Assembly: GCF_000015825.1 (NCBI RefSeq)
Contig: NC_009051.1
Coordinates: 800,695-864,694 of the forward strand
DNA from: Methanoculleus marisnigri JR1
Lineage (GTDB): Archaea > Halobacteriota > Methanomicrobia > Methanomicrobiales > Methanoculleaceae
Reading direction: 5' to 3'
Length of the DNA: 64,000 nt
In this document: positions 11,753 to 47,103 of the stretch, in pieces
Position numbering within the stretch: the stretch's first letter is position 1
Layout: the number at the start of each line of letters is the position of its first letter
Position numbers and translations under genes: made by a program
The notes under the pieces: model-generated
The model's database searches: none
Seen by the model: the letters and a program-made list of their open reading frames with translations, nothing else
What the model was told of the DNA's origin: nothing

Positions 11753-12763
11753 GTGGTGAAGGATTGCTCCACCGATACGGTAGCACGGGCCGTCAGGGAA
11801 TACGAGGGCGTCACCCGGAAGAAGGAGATCGGGGATATGATCCGGTCTCTCCGGATAGAGAGCCCCGATGTTGTCGCTTCGTTCGGTGAGGATGCCGCGG
11901 TCATCCGGCATAACGCAGAGGACGCGTTGCTTCTTGCGGCGGACGGTATCTGGAGCAAGTTGATGGAGGCGGACCCGTTCTGGGCGGGGTACTGCGCCGT
12001 GCTCGTGAACGTTCACGATATCGCCGCCATGGGCGGAAGGCCGGTTGCGATGGTCGATATCCTCTCCGTCACGAGCGATCGGCTCCGCGACGAAGTGACC
12101 CGGGGCATGGTCGCGGCATCCGCACAGTTCGGCGTCCCGATCGTGGGCGGGCACCTGCATCCGAATACGCCCTACAGCGTCGTGGATGTGGCGATCCTCG
12201 GGACGGCCACGATGGACCAGATCATCTTCTCGAACACGGCAGAGGAGGGCGACGTGGTCGTCGCGGCGATAGACCTCGACGGCCGGGTGCACCCGTCGTG
12301 CTGCTTCAACTGGGACTCGGTCACGATGAAGTCGGCGGAAGCGGTGCGGGCCCAGATCCGGGTGATGGAGGATCTCGGCAAAGAGCACCTGGTGACGGCC
12401 GGGAAGGATATCAGCAACCCGGGCGTCATCGGGACGCTCGGGATGCTCCTCGAGGTGAGCGGGAAGGGCGCGGTGATCGACCTCGAGGCGATACCCCGGC
12501 CGGACCTCTCGGCGATCGACCTCTCCTTCGAGCAGTGGGTGCGCATGTACCCCGGCATGGGTTTCATCCTGACCGTCAAACCGGAGAACGTGGAGGAGGT
12601 CCGCCGCCGGTTTGCCGACGTCGGGATCACCGCCGCCGCTATCGGGGAGGTGAACGGGAGCCGGAGGCTCTCCGTCAGGTACCTGGGCCGGGAGACGCAG
12701 GTCTTCGATCTGGACCGGGAAGGGATCATGCGCTTCTTCCCCGAAGGAGGGGCATGCCGGTAA
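11753..12763 (+). CDS. putative methanogenesis marker protein 2 (AIR synthase-related)
   Basis: 336 residues of the AIR synthase/HypE/selenophosphate synthetase-like ATP-binding fold: FGEDAAVI near residue 44, an ADGIWSKL segment, VNVHDIAAMGGRP, and GKDISNPG in the C-terminal half. The family is found across methanogens and used as a methanogenesis marker; the reaction is unknown. It begins with tandem GTG codons (GTG at 11753 or 11756). A TATA-like ATACCATAAAG is about 25-35 bases upstream. It overlaps mtxX by 10 bases, so the two are coupled. Confidence 0.9.
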   Translation: MVKDCSTDTVARAVREYEGVTRKKEIGDMIRSLRIESPDVVASFGEDAAVIRHNAEDALLLAADGIWSKLMEADPFWAGYCAVLVNVHDIAAMGGRPVAMVDILSVTSDRLRDEVTRGMVAASAQFGVPIVGGHLHPNTPYSVVDVAILGTATMDQIIFSNTAEEGDVVVAAIDLDGRVHPSCCFNWDSVTMKSAEAVRAQIRVMEDLGKEHLVTAGKDISNPGVIGTLGMLLEVSGKGAVIDLEAIPRPDLSAIDLSFEQWVRMYPGMGFILTVKPENVEEVRRRFADVGITAAAIGEVNGSRRLSVRYLGRETQVFDLDREGIMRFFPEGGACR

Positions 12764-39748: not shown

Positions 39749-39895
39749 GGTAGCCTCCAATCTTCGGCCCCGCCTCAAATACCTTTGGGCCCGGGAGTCC
39801 CCCTGGAGAACGGTTGCCGGATCGGTTTTCCCCCGGCGGCATGCGGGCGTCGGACTTAATACATGCGATGGAGAATAGGTAATGGCACGTTTTGA

Positions 39896-39980
39896 GCGAG
39901 GGTAGCCAAGCCCGGCCAACGGCGCCGGACTTAAGATCCGGTCCCGAAGGGGTCCGTGGGTTCGAATCCCACCCCTCGCA
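39896..39980 (+). tRNA. tRNA-Leu (anticodon UAA)
   Basis: An 85-base class II tRNA. The acceptor arms GCGAGGG and CCCTCGC pair and A is the discriminator. The anticodon TAA is at 39932-39934 inside a CTTAAGA loop, the variable arm is long (as in leucine tRNAs), and the T loop is GTTCGAATC. CCA is not encoded. Its 3' half is duplicated downstream, so it appears to be an integration target. A TATA-like CTTAATAC lies about 40 bases upstream. Confidence 0.97.
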
Positions 39981-39981
39981 T

Positions 39982-40354
39982 GTTGTCATGGTTATTCTTG
40001 AATAATTAGTGCCCTTTTTGCAATTGAGCGCTTCTTCTGCAAATACGCGGGTTTTATCGCCCGGGGGCACGGTTGCCCTTGAGATCTCTTACGCCCCCGC
40101 CTCCCGCAGGCGCGCGGAGCAGATCGGGCGTGTGGTGACGGAACCCTGATGCTCGCACGTTACGATCGTCGGTATGCGTCTAAGACGATTCATGCAACTA
40201 TGCCCTTTATGCCGGGTTCCTCGCATTACAATCCGGGAAAACTCCCGGTGGTCATAAAATGATTCTGATCGGCAAAGTCGCTACTGTAAAGGCTATTGTT
40301 ATTATCTCCCGGGGAAAATACCCTCTTATCATTTAAAAGGAACCTCTGATTCAG
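39982..40354. other. intergenic region downstream of tRNA-Leu
   Basis: About 370 bases, more AT-rich than the flanks, between the tRNA and the sensor kinase. It holds a short hairpin (CCGGGA/TCCCGG around 40232-40247) and AT-rich stretches before the kinase start. The minus-strand open frame crossing the tRNA is not a gene. I looked here for the missing N-terminal half of the truncated integrase and did not see it. Confidence 0.5.
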
Positions 40355-42562
40355 ATGCCGTCTCCCTCAGAAAACATACCCGAATGTTCCTATCCCGCCG
40401 GACAGGGCAAAACGGCGCCGGAAATCTCCGGAGAGGTCGAACAGTGTGTTCGAGAGCGGTTGCAGGAGTTCCAAACAGAAATCGATGCGCTTCGGCGTGA
40501 AAATGAGAGGCTGAAACGCGTTGAAAACGAGGCATTTCTGAATGGCAAGCAGGAGCTCGATCTGATCTACGCATCGGCCCCAATCGGACTATGCCTTATT
40601 GACACTGATACCCGGTACCTTCGTATCAACAGAATTTTTGCGGAGATGAATGGATATTCCATCGGAGAGCACATCGGTAAGAGAGTCCGGGAGATCTTGC
40701 CGGACCTTGCGGATGCGGCAGAGGAACTCACGCGAAAGGTTGTAAAGACGGGTGAAGCCGTGCTCAATACGGAGATTCAGGGGGAGACCCCGGCACGGCC
40801 CGGTGCGGTGCGGTACTGGAAAGAGACCTGGTCGCCGCTCAAGAATGACCGGGGGGAAGTCGTGGCTATCAATATAGTCGCCCGGGAGATCACCGGGCAA
40901 AAGCAAGCCGAGGATGCATTGCATCGCAGCGAAGGGCAACTGGCGCTCGAGGTAGAAACGCTGACCAAACTCCACACCTTCAGCACCCGTCTGCTCGCGA
41001 TGTCGGATATCGAAACCGTGGCGCAGGAAGCGCTGGATGAGCTGATCGATCTGGTCGGCGCGGAGATGGGAACCCTTCAGGTCTACGACCCTGTTACCGG
41101 CGGCTTGAAATTTATGGCGACCCGAGCCCTCGATGAGGCCGCGATCGCGTCCCTGCCGGCAGTCATCGCTCCGGATTACCCCTCGACATGCGGCCGTGCG
41201 CTGAAGACGCGGCAACGCATTATCGTTGAGGACACTCTGAGCGATCCTGCTGCGGCCGCCCATCGCACGCCCGCTGCCAAACTCGGCTACCGGGCGGCTC
41301 AAAGTACGCCGCTGCTCGCCAACGGTGAACTCTTCGGCATGATCTCAACGCACTTCCGTCAGCCGCATCACTTCACGGAGCATGATCTGCGGTTGATCGA
41401 TCTGGCGGCATCGCACACCGCTTCGCTCATGGAACGAACGCGTGCGGCCGAGATATTGCGCGAGAGTGAGGAACGTCTGTCTCTCGCGCTCGAAGCCGCC
41501 CAATTCGGGACGTTCGACTTCGACCTCAGGACCCGGAAGGCCAACTGGGACGAACAATCGAAACGGATATTTGGCGTCTCCGGAAGGGGGGGGCCTGGAT
41601 ACGAAGGGTTCATCGGGTTAATTCATCCCGACGATCGGGCGCGGGTTGAGGCTGTGCTTGCCCGGGCCTTCGATCCGGCCACAGACGGTACCTACGAGAC
41701 CGAGTTTCGCATTATCCGCCCGGATGGCGGTATGGTGTGGAACCGGACGGCAGGGAAGATGTACTTCGAGGGCGAGGGACCGGAACGAAAGGCTGTTCGT
41801 CAACTTGGAATAAACCAGGATATCACCGAGCGCAAGAGGGAGGAAGAGGCGCTCAAGCGGCATACCGCCGAGCTCGCCAGGCTCCACCGCGACCTGAAGA
41901 TAGCAAACCGGGAGGCGAACCTGTATCTCGACATCCTGACCCACGACATCGGCAACACCGAGAATGTCTCGAATCTCTATGCCGACATTCTGATCGAGGC
42001 ATTGCAGGGGAAGGAGGAAGAGATCGGATACGTGAAAAAACTCCAGCGTAGCGTCCAGAAGAGCATCGAGATCCTGAGGACCGTCTCCACCATCCGCCGG
42101 ATTCATCGGACGACCTCCGAACTCCGGCCGGTGGGTCTGGATGCGGCGATCAGGGGAGTGATCCGGAGCTCCCCGAGCAGCACCATTCTCTACGACGGAG
42201 CGAGTTCCCGGGTATGGGGCGACGATCTGTTCCCGGTGGTCATGGATAATCTCGTCGGCAATGCCGTCAAGCACGGCGGTCCGGATGTCGAGATCGTCAT
42301 CCGGGTGGAAGAACTGGACGGCAGGGTGCTGGTCTCTGTCGAGGATACCGGGCCGGGTGTCCCTGACACAGAAAAGCAGGAGATCTTTCACCGATACGAG
42401 CAGAAACGCCGGGGCGTCGGCGAAGGGCTCGGGCTGTACCTCGTGCGGATCCTGGTCGAGCGCTACGGTGGAATGGTCTGGGTCGACGATCGGGTGCCGG
42501 GCCGGCCGGAGGAAGGGGCGGCGTTCCGGTTCACGGTTGCAACGGCGCCGGAGAGTGACTGA
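40355..42562 (+). CDS. PAS-GAF-PAS sensor histidine kinase
   Basis: 735 residues, soluble. After a short coiled coil (about 30-65): PAS (about 70-190), GAF (about 200-360), PAS with PAC (about 365-490), a linker helix and a methanogen-type kinase core. The phospho-acceptor helix is LDILTHDIGNTEN near residue 530; the ATPase domain has N-box VGNAVKHGG, G1 EDTGPGVPD and G2 GVGEGLGLYLV. It has no membrane segments, so it senses a cytoplasmic signal. No response regulator lies next to it. The kinase core closely resembles that of the 61194-63617 kinase. It lies between tRNA-Leu and a degenerate copy of its 3' end. Confidence 0.9.
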   Translation: MPSPSENIPECSYPAGQGKTAPEISGEVEQCVRERLQEFQTEIDALRRENERLKRVENEAFLNGKQELDLIYASAPIGLCLIDTDTRYLRINRIFAEMNGYSIGEHIGKRVREILPDLADAAEELTRKVVKTGEAVLNTEIQGETPARPGAVRYWKETWSPLKNDRGEVVAINIVAREITGQKQAEDALHRSEGQLALEVETLTKLHTFSTRLLAMSDIETVAQEALDELIDLVGAEMGTLQVYDPVTGGLKFMATRALDEAAIASLPAVIAPDYPSTCGRALKTRQRIIVEDTLSDPAAAAHRTPAAKLGYRAAQSTPLLANGELFGMISTHFRQPHHFTEHDLRLIDLAASHTASLMERTRAAEILRESEERLSLALEAAQFGTFDFDLRTRKANWDEQSKRIFGVSGRGGPGYEGFIGLIHPDDRARVEAVLARAFDPATDGTYETEFRIIRPDGGMVWNRTAGKMYFEGEGPERKAVRQLGINQDITERKREEEALKRHTAELARLHRDLKIANREANLYLDILTHDIGNTENVSNLYADILIEALQGKEEEIGYVKKLQRSVQKSIEILRTVSTIRRIHRTTSELRPVGLDAAIRGVIRSSPSSTILYDGASSRVWGDDLFPVVMDNLVGNAVKHGGPDVEIVIRVEELDGRVLVSVEDTGPGVPDTEKQEIFHRYEQKRRGVGEGLGLYLVRILVERYGGMVWVDDRVPGRPEEGAAFRFTVATAPESD

Positions 42563-42611
42563 TGTTTTCGGAAGCACATTCGCAGGTGTTTTGCTTGCCG
42601 AGAGGGCCTGG

Positions 42612-42662
42612 TTACGATCCGCTCCCGCAGGGGTCCGTGGGTTGGAATCGTGTCCCTTGCAT
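42612..42662 (+). pseudogene. degenerate copy of the tRNA-Leu 3' half (candidate attachment site)
   Basis: Aligns without gaps to 39931-39981 of the tRNA-Leu gene, 42 of 51 bases identical, with an exact 15-base run (AGGGGTCCGTGGGTT). The 5' half, the anticodon base pairs and the acceptor pairing are missing, so it is not a functional tRNA. It begins right after the kinase gene. A duplicated tRNA 3' end is the classic scar of tRNA-targeted integration. Confidence 0.85.
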
Positions 42663-42702
42663 TCTGGAGTTTGGGTATAGTTGGTAGGAAAAATGCTATT
42701 AA

Positions 42703-42993
42703 TTATAGCCTTACAAAGTTTTGCAATCCTTTTTGGAAGATTTCAATTCTGTCTATATTTTCATCGATACCACCTCGCTTTTTAAAGTATCGCACATCGC
42801 CCCAATCTGGTCCTACCAGCAGAATCTTAGCATCCAGACTCCCCTGCCACAAAGACCAGGGACCTATCTCATCAGAGTCATACTCTGAGATCTGTGAGGG
42901 GTTGGTTAGACCTTCACAGAGACAACACTGTTTTCGCTGCTTTACCAGTTCTCGATATGCTTCGTCCTTCTTGCCTCTTGCAACATCGCTCAT
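42703..42993 (-). pseudogene. N-terminal fragment of a uracil-DNA glycosylase-superfamily protein
   Basis: 96 codons. The first 75 residues match the start of a uracil-DNA glycosylase-like protein (CCLCEGLTNPSQ, then GPWSLWQGSLDAKILLVGPDWGD, which corresponds to motif A). The family is about 200 residues or more, but the frame ends after a short unrelated tail, so the catalytic C-terminal half is missing. Its ATG overlaps the integrase-fragment stop by 4 bases. The DNA is clearly AT-richer than its surroundings. Confidence 0.7.
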
Positions 42994-43427
42994 AACCCTA
43001 GATCTGCTTTCAGGGCCTTTAACAATTGCAAATACTCTCCACTCTTCCTCGCCTCCTCCGTCGACTCGTCCACTTTCCTCGCCGCCTCCTCAACGAGCGC
43101 CATCGAGCACGTCGCACAGTAGAGAGCGTCGTGGGCGTTCAGGTTCTTGCACCGCGGGCACTGCCGGGGCTCGAGCGCGGCATCTGCCGGGTCGGGAGTT
43201 TCATCGATGAACCCGGCGTCCTCCAGAAACTTTCGCTCGACATCCGCACCGGACAGATGGATATACACCTCGGGCATCGCGCTGTTCTTCTCCCAGCCGG
43301 CGACGAGCCGGAGCTCCATCTCCGAGAGGGCCTGCTTCTTACCGTTGCTCTGGGTCAGGTCGGTGAGCCGCGCATGGTGGATCGCGTGCGGGTGAATCGG
43401 TCTTGTCATGCCAACCACCCCTCGCAT
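42990..43427 (-). pseudogene. C-terminal fragment of a tyrosine recombinase (integrase)
   Basis: 145 codons. The sequence holds the HxxR box (HAIHHARLTDL), a GWEKNSAMPEVYIHLSGADV segment with the nucleophile tyrosine, and a C-terminal zinc ribbon (CPRCKN...CATC), as in archaeal XerD-like integrases. The N-terminal core-binding domain and the first catalytic arginine are missing. The 5' end of the fragment coincides exactly with a 13-base copy of the tRNA-Leu 3' end (43415-43427), suggesting that the gene was cut at its attachment site. An alternative is simple deletion. Confidence 0.75.
43415..43427 (+). repeat. 13-base exact copy of the tRNA-Leu 3' end (candidate attachment core)
   Basis: CCACCCCTCGCAT is identical to 39969-39981. 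The bases just after it (CTGGAATTT) also resemble those after the 42612-42662 copy (CTGGAGTTT), so the two downstream sites share a flank. Confidence 0.75.
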
Positions 43428-43544
43428 CTGGAATTTACGATTGTAAATCTCGCGAATGCCCTATATCCGCTTGCGAATCCGGTCGGCGGCAAAGCGATCT
43501 TGCACCCGCCGACGAGCCTGCCACCACAATGCACTGCACACGTA

Positions 43545-43555
43545 ATTTATTATAC
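43545..43555 (+). promoter_or_regulatory. TATA box for a leaderless message at 43577
   Basis: ATTTATTATAC, centred about 27 bases before the ATG at 43577, so transcription should begin at the start codon. Confidence 0.55.
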
Positions 43556-43576
43556 TTCTTTTATACATGTGGCACC

Positions 43577-43960
43577 ATGGCTCCAACATACCGTGATGCA
43601 ACCATCAACTCCGTCGAAGCGACTGCCACGGTCAGCGGCAGCACGGGCGGTGGCCGCGACGAGAAGGGCAACGTGTACTTCTTCCCGGACGTCTCGGTGA
43701 GCATCGGCTACTGGTTCGACAACGAAGGAGTTCCGTCTTCGGACTGGGATACGCACTTCAAGGCGCAGCTGTGGATCAACGGTGAACAGGTCGGCAAGAA
43801 ACAGGACCTCTCCGCCGGCGGCCCGCAGACCTACACGTTCTTCGCGCACAAGTTCCCGGCAGCGGGGACGTATAAGGTGGAGGTTCGCGGGAAGAACTCG
43901 AAGTCGGTCGATGTTACGATCAAGAATCCCCCGGTGCAGGAGAAGAAGGCGGCGCAGTGA
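43577..43960 (+). CDS. hypothetical protein with immunoglobulin-like/beta-sandwich pattern
   Basis: 127 residues, beta-strand rich (ATINSVEATATVSGS, VYFFPDVSVSIGYWFDN, TYTFFAHKFPAAGTYKVEVRGKNSKSVDVTIKN). The closing pattern AAGTYKVEVRG is that of PKD/CARDB-like sandwich domains. It has no signal peptide, so it is probably cytoplasmic despite the fold type. I do not recognise the family. It stands alone between the integrase fragment and a regulator; the next 274 bases show nothing recognisable. Confidence 0.6.
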   Translation: MAPTYRDATINSVEATATVSGSTGGGRDEKGNVYFFPDVSVSIGYWFDNEGVPSSDWDTHFKAQLWINGEQVGKKQDLSAGGPQTYTFFAHKFPAAGTYKVEVRGKNSKSVDVTIKNPPVQEKKAAQ

Positions 43961-44234
43961 CGGGGGGGGAGCGTCTAATTTTTCGCTAATCTATAACCGC
44001 CCTGTTCTGGATCTGTTGAGCACCGAGAACCACTTATGAGATTGTGCAATATGTGTACCTATTATACTCGCTACCGTCCTCGTTTGGGACGGTAGTTTGT
44101 TCTTTTGTTTTACTCCCGTGTCACGAGCAGGTTCAGGTAGCCCGGGCAACATCTACACCTCACGGAGCCGGTTTTTCCCCTCGATTATGCCGGCGGCTCA
44201 CCTGTCCTGGGGATGAAGCATATTTCGGTGAGGA

Positions 44235-45599
44235 TCATTCCCGAACCTCCCAGTGACCGCCCCGGGCAGGGCCGATGCGGCGGAGCCGACCATCTTCACG
44301 AAGTTTGGCGATCTGCTTTTCAACTGCTCTCTGCGTGATTCCCAGCCTTTCTGCGACTACTCTTGCTGCAAGGTCGGGTTCGGCCTTCAGGAGCGCGAGG
44401 ATTTTCTCCGAACTTTTCTCCGAACTTTTCTCCGAACTTTTCTCCTCCTTTCGGTGAACTGTGACGGTGAAAAGGCAGCCGTCCCGGTCATCGGCAAAGT
44501 CGATCTCAGGCCAGTCTTCGAGTGCCCGTTTGATGCCGGAGCCGAGGCCGCGGTATGGCAGCAGCCCCTTTGCGACGTACGATGCCAAGATCGGATTCCT
44601 GATATTGGAGTTACCAGCCCGGATTTTTGCCACCGTCAGATTGTTCGGGAGGTGGCCAGGGCTAATAATCTCGATGCGGTTGTCGAAGACGAACAGCCGG
44701 ATAGGTGCGCTGACCAGATAGTCCCGATGCACCAGGGCATTGACCAGCAGTTCCTCAAAGACAACCGGCGGAATTTCTGGAACCCCTGGTGCATTGATTC
44801 CCTTGCCTGCCTGAGTTTTCCTGAGGTTGCGCATGATAAACGCCATGGCACCTTCGAAGACCTCAGGGAGCGTCCCGGAGAAATCCTCGCTGTCGAGATA
44901 CTCGCTTACGTGAATGGCGTTGCCGGGATAGCGGATAGCCTTGATGACGAACTGCGGTTTGATCCACTCGGGCTTCTCAGCAAAGAGGAGCGCCCCGGCC
45001 AGATTCAGCATGCCGTTATCCGCGGCAAGGTTCATGTTCTGCAGGAGCGTTAGCAGTTCTTCAGACGAATCCGGGTAAGGTTGATTATAGGCGTTCCGCA
45101 GAAAGTCCCGGAAGCGCAGACTGTCCAGTTTGTCGACGCCTGCTCTGGTCGGCAGTTCGTCGGCATGGAAGATATCGACGCTCTGGAAGAGGCGGCGGAG
45201 TTCCTCCCTGGAGTTCACCCGCCGTTTGTCGGCCCCGTTTTTGAACCAGATCACACCGTTCCTATCGAAGTATGGCTTATCCTGCCCCTTCGGAACGGTG
45301 AGCACGATGACGATGCGATCTTCATCCACCTGAACATTCTCAGTCTGTACCGTCAACGGGCTCTTCACGTGCTGAGAGGCCGCGTTGCTGATGAGCTGGT
45401 TGAGTCGATTCACATCCGTGCGTGAGAGACCCAGTACGGAGCCATCGTCAGCAACACCGAGAAAAAGCGTGCCCCCTTCGGCATTGGCAAATGCAGCCAT
45501 CTCAGCAGCAAGGGCATCGGCGTTGGTAACGTCGCGCTTGAACTGGCGGCGGCTGTCTTCACCGGTGGCGATCAGGGCTCGGAGGATATCAGGGATCAT
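44235..45599 (-). CDS. Schlafen/AlbA_2-domain ATPase with C-terminal winged helix (COG2865-type regulator)
   Basis: 454 residues. N-terminal AlbA_2 (Schlafen-like) domain with EMAAFANAEGGTLFLGVADDGSV (about 32-54); a middle region; a GHKL-like ATPase domain with ELLVNALVHRDY, DNRIEIISPGHLP and GLGSGIKRAL; then a linker of S-E-K repeats encoded by a tandem 12-base repeat, and a winged helix (AERLGITQRAVEKQIAKL). Such proteins are often transcription regulators or parts of defence systems. The start ATG at 45599 has GAGG upstream; a longer frame begins too close to the TATA box. Confidence 0.8.
   Translation of the reverse strand: MIPDILRALIATGEDSRRQFKRDVTNADALAAEMAAFANAEGGTLFLGVADDGSVLGLSRTDVNRLNQLISNAASQHVKSPLTVQTENVQVDEDRIVIVLTVPKGQDKPYFDRNGVIWFKNGADKRRVNSREELRRLFQSVDIFHADELPTRAGVDKLDSLRFRDFLRNAYNQPYPDSSEELLTLLQNMNLAADNGMLNLAGALLFAEKPEWIKPQFVIKAIRYPGNAIHVSEYLDSEDFSGTLPEVFEGAMAFIMRNLRKTQAGKGINAPGVPEIPPVVFEELLVNALVHRDYLVSAPIRLFVFDNRIEIISPGHLPNNLTVAKIRAGNSNIRNPILASYVAKGLLPYRGLGSGIKRALEDWPEIDFADDRDGCLFTVTVHRKEEKSSEKSSEKSSEKILALLKAEPDLAARVVAERLGITQRAVEKQIAKLREDGRLRRIGPARGGHWEVRE
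44408..44443. repeat. three tandem copies of a 12-base unit inside the regulator gene
   Basis: CCGAACTTTTCT is repeated exactly three times, encoding the SSEK-type linker between the ATPase and winged-helix domains. The unit is a multiple of three, so copy-number change keeps the frame and only alters linker length. Confidence 0.9.
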
Positions 45600-45939
45600 G
45601 GGGGGAGCCTCGTTGTGGAGGGGGCAGAAGGTAGGCTGTCTCTGTAGATCCCGTTCCCATCTTCCCTCTCTGGTTGTTGCGATACGATAAGTACCCATTT
45701 TGGATCGGGGCTATATTAACCTACCATTTTTCTGGATTCAACTATCTCTTGACTTTCCAAATCCCGAATTTGCAGGAGGCATCTTCGACTTTTCCCTCTA
45801 TCTACGGTGATAACCCCGAATACCATGGTCTTGAGCTTCTTTCTCCTTCATACTTCAGGCAATCCCCGGCGAGGTGTTTCGCCAATCGACATGTTCCAGT
45901 CGTCTCTTTTTATATGTCGGTTCTGCTGAGATCTACTAT
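45600..45939. promoter_or_regulatory. divergent promoter region between the regulator and nuclease-like genes
   Basis: 340 bases. On the minus strand GGTTAATATAGCC (45708-45720) fits a TATA box for the regulator, giving a leader near 90 bases. On the plus strand TTTTTATATG (about 45907-45916) is 27 bases before the ATG at 45940, so that message is probably leaderless. No gene is recognised in between; the DNA is AT-rich. Confidence 0.55.
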
Positions 45940-47103
45940 ATGGGCGGCAAGATATTCCTCCTCAAAGACGGTGACGAATTGCAGGAGATGGTCGAAACCC
46001 CGTATGATTCTGAAGACCTCCTTCAGCAGCTCCTCAAGAACCATCCTGCGCTTCTTGCCGGTGACCAGATTGATCCGACCGAACCGAGGAGATGGCTGTT
46101 GATCACTCGTGAAATGGGTGTCCCGGATAGCGATGACAGTACAGGGAGGTGGGCACTCGACCATTTGTTCATTGACCAGGACGGAATCCCTACCCTCGTT
46201 GAGGTGAAGCGGAGCTGCGACACTCGAACTCGCCGTGAGGTGGTTGCCCAGATGCTGGACTATGCAGCGAACTCAGTGCAGTACTGGAATATCGGAGATA
46301 TCATCAGATCCTTTACTCACACTTGTGGAGAGAAAGGAGTTGACCCTGAAGAGGAACTTGCAGCCTTCTTATCTGGCTCTACCGATCCCGAGGAATATTG
46401 GGATATAGCGTTGGCGAACCTTCGGCAGGGGAAGATCCGACTCCTCTTTGTCACCGATATTATCCCCCCTGAATTGAAGAGGATTATCGAGTTCCTGAAT
46501 GAGCAGATGAATCCCGCGGAGGTGCTCGGGGTGGAGGTTAAGCAGTATACCGGCCGAAAGGAAAAAACCCTTGTCTCCAGGGTCGTTGGCCAGACGATGA
46601 GGGCGATCGACACCAAGAAGGTTCGGTCTGGAAAACCACGGCAATGGGATCGGGAGTCGTTACTTCTGCAGGTGCAGGAGAGGGCAGGAGATGAATCTGT
46701 GCGTATTGTAGATCATGTCCTTGAATGGGCGGAGACGCACAATTTCTCATTGAAATACGGAAAGGGTGCGCACGAGGGGTCAGCAACGATTGGACTCGAC
46801 CTGCCCGGCGGGAATTACTGCAGGATTATCACAGTGAATGGAGGAGGCAGCATCGCTCCTAACTTTGATATGCTATTGGGTTTTCCTCCATTTGATCAGA
46901 GGGAGATGCGCCTAAAGATGCTTAATAAATTGGGCCGCGAAAGCAATATCCGGTTTGATCCGAATAAAGTCGATACCTGGTCAAACCGACCTCTCTCTCC
47001 GCTCGCAGATGAGAACCACTTCCATGCGTTTTGCAAGACCCTTGAGTGGGTGAGAGGTAAGCTGGAAGAGCATCACCGACTTGCAGGAGCGCAATCGGGA
47101 TAA
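45940..47103 (+). CDS. PD-(D/E)XK nuclease-like protein (NucS/DUF91-like domain), paralogue 1
   Basis: 387 residues. Around residues 70-95, ALDHLFIDQDGIPTLVEVKRS fits the D-x(n)-E-x-K core of restriction-endonuclease-like folds; it is followed by an RREVVAQMLDYAAN helix, as in NucS-type nucleases. The middle (LANLRQGKIRLLFVTDIIPPELKRIIEFLNE) is shared with the next gene. The C-terminal part (GSATIGLDLPGGNYCRII) looks like a separate beta domain. Codon use is AT-richer than the core genome. No characterised family is recognised beyond the nuclease fold; a role in defence or element maintenance is inference. Confidence 0.65.
   Translation: MGGKIFLLKDGDELQEMVETPYDSEDLLQQLLKNHPALLAGDQIDPTEPRRWLLITREMGVPDSDDSTGRWALDHLFIDQDGIPTLVEVKRSCDTRTRREVVAQMLDYAANSVQYWNIGDIIRSFTHTCGEKGVDPEEELAAFLSGSTDPEEYWDIALANLRQGKIRLLFVTDIIPPELKRIIEFLNEQMNPAEVLGVEVKQYTGRKEKTLVSRVVGQTMRAIDTKKVRSGKPRQWDRESLLLQVQERAGDESVRIVDHVLEWAETHNFSLKYGKGAHEGSATIGLDLPGGNYCRIITVNGGGSIAPNFDMLLGFPPFDQREMRLKMLNKLGRESNIRFDPNKVDTWSNRPLSPLADENHFHAFCKTLEWVRGKLEEHHRLAGAQSG

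What the first reader, a model, noticed from the sequence alone, without database searches (positions are those of the whole stretch)
42990..43427. Integrase fragment begins at the attachment-like core, with no N-terminal half found
The C-terminal tyrosine recombinase part (HxxR box, nucleophile Tyr, zinc ribbon) begins within a few codons of the 13-base tRNA match. In SSV-type integration one would expect the N-terminal half on the minus strand next to the tRNA gene; I read that region (39982-40354) and did not see it. So either the second half was deleted, or the split happened by another route.
Basis: partly seen in the sequence, partly recalled or inferred. Interest (0 to 1): 0.5.

Follow-up and report, generated by a model that had tools for sequence, protein, structure and literature searches.

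The report
Integrase remnant beside broken tRNA site
The fragment is the tail of a decayed integrase left by a mobile element that had inserted into a leucine tRNA gene, and its intact relatives insert into the middle of that tRNA gene, break it, and bring a spare tRNA gene that probably keeps the cell alive.

Summary
Observation largely confirmed. 42990-43427(-) is the C-terminal part of a ~378-aa tyrosine integrase, joined to the last 13 nt of tRNA-Leu(TAA) read antisense. One correction: the catalytic HxxR has become HAIH. The 13 nt are a true attR: in an empty-site relative the tRNA runs straight into the flank that starts at 43428. SSV-type splitting is not supported. In the nine close relatives with an intact integrase that I examined, the tRNA part lies upstream of the gene; none of eight close copies has the core at codon ~237. 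The N-terminal half was deleted (about 0.8 kb). A second species has the identical junction but different element DNA behind it, which points to later homologous recombination inside the integrase gene. The more interesting result lies in the relatives. Their integrases recombine at a ~9-nt core in the tRNA-Leu anticodon loop, leaving the host gene in two unjoined halves. The element carries a complete tRNA-Leu with the same anticodon (10 left junctions in 9 genomes, 3 genera, two isoacceptors). This matches the sequence criteria of 'tRNA-dependent lysogeny', known from actinobacteriophages; my literature searches showed no archaeal report. Whether the window's own lost element worked this way is not shown.

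The parts
42990..43427 (-). C-terminal integrase remnant (box II and Tyr region, zinc ribbon); homology to intact integrases starts at about intact residue 237
43415..43427 (+). attR remnant: last 13 nt of a displaced tRNA-Leu 3' part, fused to the integrase remnant
43428..43640 (.). original chromosomal flank downstream of tRNA-Leu (contiguous with the tRNA in the empty site of G028)
39896..39980 (+). complete tRNA-Leu(TAA), the integration target; the only TAA match to the tRNA-Leu pattern (up to 3 mismatches) in this genome
42612..42662 (+). second, degenerate copy of the tRNA-Leu 3' half, starting at the anticodon loop (51 nt, 82%)
39982..42611 (.). younger unit between tRNA and second copy; with tRNA and copy it is 99.5% identical over 2821 bp to G006; carries a PAS/GAF histidine kinase (40355-42562 +), no integrase seen
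42663..42757 (.). old element end next to the second copy; together with 42612-42662 it matches the tRNA 3' part and downstream DNA of G032 at 90.5%
42703..42993 (-). 96-aa open frame overlapping the integrase stop codon; no Pfam (E <= 0.1) or PADLOC (E <= 0.001) match; nature unknown

Best explanation
The fragment is the scar of an integrative element that had entered tRNA-Leu(TAA). Its integrase was a tyrosine integrase with the att site just upstream of the gene, not inside it. Integration pushed the 3' part of a tRNA-Leu to the right end of the element (attR), next to the 5' end of int. A later deletion of about 0.8 kb removed all but the last 13 nt of that displaced tRNA part, the ~60-nt spacer and int codons 1 to ~236, fusing 13 tRNA bases to the integrase C-terminus (shown by alignment; the deletion itself is inferred). 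The scar is now dead as a recombinase (no N-terminal half, box-II Arg changed to His). The same scar in G033 carries different element DNA behind it. The best account is that the scar arose once and that later elements recombined homologously with its integrase remnant (inferred). Intact members of this integrase family recombine at a ~9-nt core in the anticodon loop, split the host tRNA-Leu, and carry a complete tRNA-Leu of the same anticodon as a replacement (anatomy shown where both ends were found; dependence on that tRNA inferred).
For: Empty site: G028 reads tRNA-Leu ...CCCTCGCAT directly into the flank found at 43428 in the window, and its match to the window runs 43415-43994 in one piece. 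Intact relatives: displaced tRNA 3' part, spacer, then the start codon, in 7 of 7 loci with an intact start, plus L033 and G097. In G033 the element match to G026 (3528 bp, 93.6%) stops at L037 11904 and the empty-site match starts at 11905, the same cut. JR1 and G033 share the junction without a difference over 54 nt (10 flank, 13 core, 31 int), with two bases inside int not seen in the other copies aligned. Mosaic: bases shared only by the window and G032 lie only in the last part of int (7 sites at 379-430; that part, 78 columns, groups the two with 95/96 support), while G033 is 94.2% like G026 outside int but 88.8% inside. G026's integrase N-terminus and att are of tRNA-Leu(TAG) type, yet G033's copy sits at tRNA-Leu(TAA). 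Family mechanism: 10 left junctions in 9 genomes; ARAGORN finds only the element-borne tRNA at the 10 left ends and none at the 8 right ends examined; rejoined host halves give tRNA-Leu of the same anticodon in 7 of 8 pairs.
Against: The window, G033 and G032 have a complete tRNA-Leu and no host 5' half at the left, so their own element may have reconstructed the tRNA in the usual way, or the locus was repaired later. In the middle of int, the data do not resolve whether JR1 and G033 are sisters (AU p 0.09). The high dS of the remnant is not unique: two neighbouring frames reach 0.43 and 0.93. The homologous-recombination step rests on mosaic patterns in a ~430-nt region with few informative sites. 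The size of the deletion is extrapolated from G001. In G011 a left end was found but no displaced 3' half in the 18 kb fetched.
Confidence: 0.82

Rival explanations
1. SSV-type (suicidal) integrase: the att site lay inside int, integration split the gene, and the N-terminal half next to the tRNA was lost later.
For: The fragment starts at the tRNA core and the N-terminal half is missing.
Against: None of eight close copies has the core inside int at that point. Of 35 places matched at E <= 1e-25 in 232 genomes of the order, only the window and G033 match from residue 1. The tRNA part is upstream of int in the nine close intact copies examined. Four intact relatives hit PF00589, not PF16795, which the review names for the suicidal families.
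Confidence: 0.03
2. The same junction arose twice, in two different elements, because the integrase itself recombines the tRNA core with a secondary site at int codon ~237.
For: Element DNA behind the junction differs in JR1 and G033; int alleles differ (dS 0.60 against a median of 0.17, range 0.02-0.92, over 39 mechanical frames around them, several of them wrong-frame).
Against: The two share two bases inside int next to the junction that no other aligned copy has, plus sites 76 and 246; intact int has no clear similarity to the core there.
Confidence: 0.1
3. The 145-aa C-terminal piece is kept as a working stand-alone protein, for example a DNA-binding regulator.
For: Open frame in both species; dN/dS 0.15 between them, far from 1.
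Against: dS is well above the local median, so the low ratio can be inherited from intact alleles. Changes private to the two remnants are 11 N: 7 S against 12 N: 27 S in seven other copies (six with an intact start, plus L002), that is, relaxed. The catalytic Arg is lost in the window.
Confidence: 0.07
4. For the relatives: ordinary tRNA-restoring elements beside an unrelated local tRNA duplication, not tRNA replacement.
For: The review describes integration as restoring the tRNA; the window, G033 and G032 have complete host-side tRNAs.
Against: Ten left junctions end at the same anticodon-loop position and continue into similar element sequence; the host halves fit each other (7 of 8 give a tRNA) and the complete gene beside them is different.
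Confidence: 0.05

Closest known systems
tRNA-dependent lysogeny of actinobacteriophages (Fionnbharth, Gaia; PMC10865867)
   Same: Tyrosine integrase; short (8-10 bp) shared core inside a tRNA gene; host tRNA not rebuilt; [quoted passage not shown] related integrases exist in rebuilding and non-rebuilding forms.
   Different: Archaeal hosts (Methanoculleus and relatives); elements with defence and plasmid-like genes rather than proven phages; replacement tRNA sits at the end away from int; two tRNA-Leu isoacceptors tracked by the integrase N-terminus; requirement not tested.
pNOB8-type / type II (classical) archaeal integrases
   Same: int stays intact after integration, att next to the gene, target a tRNA gene.
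   Different: Classical integration is described as restoring the tRNA (PMC8371274, section 18 passage); the intact relatives whose left end was found do not.
SSV-type (suicidal) integrases
   Same: A C-terminal integrase piece beside a tRNA core.
   Different: att site not inside int; no N-terminal half; PF00589 rather than PF16795.
Caldiarchaeum tRNA-Thr disruption (PMC3293823)
   Same: 5' tRNA fragment, a recombinase-bearing insertion and a complete tRNA at one locus; authors propose a mobile element as cause.
   Different: That case is explained by a reconstituted tRNA that gained an intron; here both unjoined halves of the host tRNA and a different complete tRNA are seen.

Membership tests
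SSV-type (suicidal) integrase | attP inside the integrase gene | tested here: not met
   tRNA part upstream of the start codon in nine close intact relatives examined; core absent from int at codon ~237 in eight close copies
SSV-type (suicidal) integrase | N-terminal half at the other end, next to the tRNA | tested here: not met
   no credible hit in window or genome; none in the G033 locus
SSV-type (suicidal) integrase | Phage_integr_3 (PF16795) domain | tested here: not met
   4 intact relatives scanned hit PF00589 and not PF16795 at E <= 0.01
Classical tyrosine integrase (PF00589) | PF00589 domain in the full-length protein | tested here: met
   4 of 4 intact relatives scanned, E 4e-18 to 4e-17; the window's fragment alone has no hit
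Classical tyrosine integrase (PF00589) | complete catalytic residues | tested here: not met
   window fragment lacks the N-terminal part with Arg I (recalled position) and has HAIH in box II; it is a remnant
tRNA-dependent integration (intact relatives) | short core shared by attP and attB, inside a tRNA gene | tested here: met
   host 5' half nt 1-42/43 and displaced 3' half nt 33/35-85 overlap by about 9 nt in G001, G012 and G029
tRNA-dependent integration (intact relatives) | host tRNA not rebuilt at either junction | tested here: met
   10 left ends: only the element-borne tRNA; 8 right ends: none
[quoted passage not shown]
   10 of 10 left ends, same anticodon TAA or TAG
tRNA-dependent integration (intact relatives) | element tRNA required for survival of the integrant | not testable with these tools
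   only the indirect result that it is the sole complete pattern match for its anticodon in the genomes scanned, some of them incomplete drafts
tRNA-dependent integration (the window's own lost element) | host 5' half and element-borne tRNA at the left end | tested here: inconclusive
   complete tRNA, no separate 5' half found; displaced 3' parts present

The most novel reading that the evidence does not exclude
Methanomicrobiales carry a family of integrative, partly defence-bearing elements whose integrase cuts the anticodon loop of tRNA-Leu, destroys the only host gene for that anticodon and supplies a replacement tRNA, so the cell cannot lose the element by a sloppy deletion. [quoted passage not shown] Dead C-terminal remnants such as the one in this window act as landing strips where elements of the other specificity are captured by homologous recombination. 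Repeated rounds would also replace the cell's tRNA genes and leave tRNA halves cut in the anticodon loop, where (as I recall) archaeal tRNA introns and splits often lie.
Probability: 0.45. Interest if true: 0.65.

Novelty: new variant of a known kind. Interest (0 to 1): 0.45.

Why it matters
The fragment itself is ordinary decay. The family it comes from shows, in archaea, integration that breaks an apparently single-copy tRNA and replaces it. The 2021 review of archaeal recombinases describes integration as restoring the tRNA. If the element tRNA is essential, element loss is punished without a toxin, and tRNA genes turn over by mobile elements. It also gives natural cases of tRNAs cut in the anticodon loop, so the idea that mobile elements seed split tRNAs becomes testable in methanogens. 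The pairing of integrase N-terminal type with tRNA-Leu isoacceptor makes target choice directly testable.

Tried and rejected
SSV split: rejected. Search for the N-terminal half in window, genome and the G033 locus: none credible. Viral contigs: no relative by tblastn; phage records: 3 hits below 60% identity; plasmids: 2 hits below 60%. Tree of the int middle part (333 columns): unresolved, JR1+G033 as one clade not rejected (p 0.09), so I do not claim non-sisterhood there. Neutral decay since a shared truncation was weighed against selection: the difference pattern (39.5 S, 26.5 N) fits neither pure neutrality nor simple vertical descent. My local dS baseline (39 frames, median 0.17, range 0.02-0.92) came from mechanical frames, some in the wrong frame (ratios above 1), so only its rough level is used. 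Two broken copies, L038 (start decayed) and L046 (frame broken), show no tRNA part before int and are left out of the nine; G017's more distant integrase gave an ambiguous att type and is also left out (10 examined). Further intact frames listed were not all examined. Left ends of the TAG-type elements in G025 and G026 were not found, and neither genome gave a complete TAG match (86% and 82% complete). I first thought the 96-aa frame at 42703-42993 resembled uracil-DNA glycosylase; no Pfam hit, so dropped. I first read the 51-54-nt tRNA copies beside int as att cores; some searches showed them to be displaced host halves with a core of only ~9 nt.

Full report
WHAT IS THERE. The window is bases 800695-864694 of a single 2,478,101-bp contig; that length equals Methanoculleus marisnigri JR1 as I recall it, and I call it JR1. 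The open frame at 42990-43427(-) encodes 145 aa. Its first 13 bases are the last 12 of tRNA-Leu(TAA) with the next base, read antisense (39969-39981); no third copy with up to one mismatch exists in the window. ARAGORN finds one tRNA in the window, tRNA-Leu(TAA) at 39896-39980. A second, degenerate 51-nt copy of the tRNA 3' part is at 42612-42662.

THE 13 BASES ARE A REAL attR. The 150-nt flank that begins at 43428 has matches in 14 of 35 genomes of the genus, the window's own included. In G028 the tRNA and this flank are contiguous...CCCATCCCTCGCATTCTGGAATTTACGATTG, and the window stretch 43415-43994 matches G028 in one piece. So everything between 39982 and about 43414 was inserted, and the 13 bases are the end of a tRNA 3' part pushed to the right.

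THE INTEGRASE WAS CUT BY DELETION, NOT SPLIT AT ITS att SITE. 33 of 61 genomes (own and near relatives) have a match to the fragment at E <= 0.01; most of the closest are full-length frames. Eight close copies read (I/V)ARKLGM(T/K)KPIH(P/S)HAIRHAR, the window reads MRGVVGMTRPIHPHAIHHAR; DNA similarity starts right after the 13 tRNA bases. Seven of seven loci with an intact integrase start have a tRNA-Leu 3' part ending 59-87 nt before the start codon; two broken copies in the same call (L038, L046) have none. Two more intact copies, L033 and G097, agree (60 and 58 nt). With the dimensions of G001 the deletion is about 0.8 kb. The N-terminal half is not in the window, and the genome has only a 22% match in a different 415-aa frame. 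The box-II Arg is His in the window and Arg in G033 and the eight close copies.

THE SAME SCAR IN A SECOND SPECIES. G033 has the same junction at the orthologous place (L037 11477-11917). Of 35 places matched at E <= 1e-25 in 232 genomes of the order, only these two match from residue 1. Behind the junction the DNA differs. G033 carries 3.5 kb that is 93.6% identical to an element of G026, ending exactly at the cut. In the window the end of int and the piece 42663-42757 resemble G032. dS between the two remnants is 0.60 against a local median of 0.17 (39 mechanical frames, range 0.02-0.92, some wrong-frame); dN/dS is 0.15. Sites shared only by the window and G032 lie in the last part of int, and that part groups with G032 (95/96, 78 columns); sites shared only by the window and G033 lie at the junction plus two further places. 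For the middle part the tree is unresolved and does not reject JR1+G033 (p 0.09). I infer one deletion, then exchange of the element side by homologous recombination in the integrase remnant; this is the weaker part of the argument.

WHAT THE INTACT RELATIVES DO. Looking at both ends changed the picture. In G001 the host tRNA-Leu(TAA) nt 1-42 (100% to the empty-site gene) are followed at once by element sequence TTAATACTAAAAAAGG, then a stretch like the host tRNA promoter region and a complete but different tRNA-Leu(TAA). At the int end, 31.7 kb away, the element sequence ...GCGCCAAGTGTATGTGATA is followed by host tRNA nt 34-85 (98%). So the shared core is about 9 nt, in the anticodon loop. 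The same anatomy holds for G012 (10.8 kb), G097 in another genus (44.9 kb), G118 (25.9 kb) and G119 (22.1 kb) in a third genus and another family, whose integrases are more distant (60% to the fragment), and, for tRNA-Leu(TAG), for G029 (16.6 kb), G012 and G007, the last two with the ends on different contigs, so that their pairing is assumed. Left ends only were seen in G011 and G016; in G011 no displaced 3' half was found in the 18 kb fetched (sizes computed from the coordinates there). In all, 10 left junctions in 9 genomes and 8 pairs. ARAGORN finds only the element-borne tRNA at the 10 left ends and no tRNA at the 8 right ends. Joining the two host halves gives tRNA-Leu of the same anticodon in 7 of 8 pairs; in the eighth (G012 TAA) the displaced half has lost a base. 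In the genomes scanned with a tRNA-Leu pattern (up to 3 mismatches; more divergent genes would be missed) the element-borne gene is the only complete match for its anticodon (TAA in G001, G011, G012, G016, G097, G118, G119; TAG in G029, G012, G007; G016 and G007 are drafts of 80% and 83% completeness). The review of archaeal recombinases states that integration restores an uninterrupted tRNA (PMC8371274, passage seen).

TARGET CHOICE AND EXCHANGE. Of 10 integrases examined, four have a TAA-type att, five a TAG-type att and one (G017) is ambiguous. Between the two types residues 1-95 are 56-64% identical, within the TAA type 76-86% and within the TAG type 88-100%; the C-terminal part is 83-95% identical across types. 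So the catalytic part appears to move between specificities, and G033 shows TAG-type element DNA lodged at the TAA site behind the old scar. I treat this as the best single pointer to capture by homologous recombination. Elements carry varied cargo: type I restriction genes and a Cdc6-like ATPase in G001, a defence-library helicase match in G032.

HOW THIS BEARS ON THE WINDOW. The window and G033 have complete tRNAs at the left and no host 5' half. Their lost element may have restored the tRNA, as related integrases of both habits coexist in phages (PMC10865867, passages), or the left end was tidied later. Whether this scar came from a tRNA-breaking member is therefore open. The upper unit (39844-42664: tRNA, histidine kinase, second tRNA copy) is 99.5% identical to G006 over 2821 bp while the pieces upstream are 82% and 92.7%, so it probably moved recently; no integrase was seen in it.

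LITERATURE. I saw the abstract, the discussion section and passages of PMC10865867, passages of PMC8371274, and the abstract and first part of the discussion of PMC3293823. Other papers were seen only as search listings. No archaeal case of tRNA replacement by an integrating element showed in searches, which cover only the held open-access library and list only their best results. PMC3293823 is the nearest and reads its case as a reconstituted tRNA that gained an intron.

VERDICT. The finding's puzzle is solved and ordinary: a deletion scar. The mechanism of the family behind it is a new variant of a known kind and deserves the attention.

Noticed in passing
window 39844-42664; L097 905-3725: A 2.8-kb block with tRNA-Leu, one PAS/GAF histidine kinase and a 51-nt tRNA copy is 99.5% identical in JR1 and G006 while pieces upstream are 82% and 92.7%; it probably moved recently and no integrase was seen in it.
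   Followed up: partly
L037 8153-8235; window 44022-44104: An ~84-nt stretch recurs beside the tRNA in G033, in the flank of several genomes, and just outside attR in G001; in the window it ends near an inverted repeat that looks like a terminator (read by eye).
   Followed up: no
L034 6001-6405; L013 1510-1731: Two other integrase C-terminal remnants begin just before HPHAIRHAR with unrelated or decayed upstream sequence.
   Followed up: no
L033 (JAHDPQ010000103.1): Contig filed under an Oscillospiraceae MAG carries a Methanoculleus-type integrase and tRNA-Leu half: probably a misbinned archaeal contig.
   Followed up: no
window 45874-47103 and 44235-45698: Genes right of the scar match PADLOC models (PDC-S11, E 1e-13; AlbA-type protein with hits to Argonaute-system models, E 1e-16), so the tRNA region may be a defence hot spot.
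   Followed up: no
L038 11429-14668: G032 element carries a 1079-aa protein matching PADLOC PDC-M23B and Hachiman helicase (HamB) models.
   Followed up: no
L041 13221-16429, L040 13608-16816, L039 4133-7386: A 113-aa frame followed by a 956-971-aa frame recurs in three elements near int; the G001 pair has no Pfam match at E <= 0.001.
   Followed up: no
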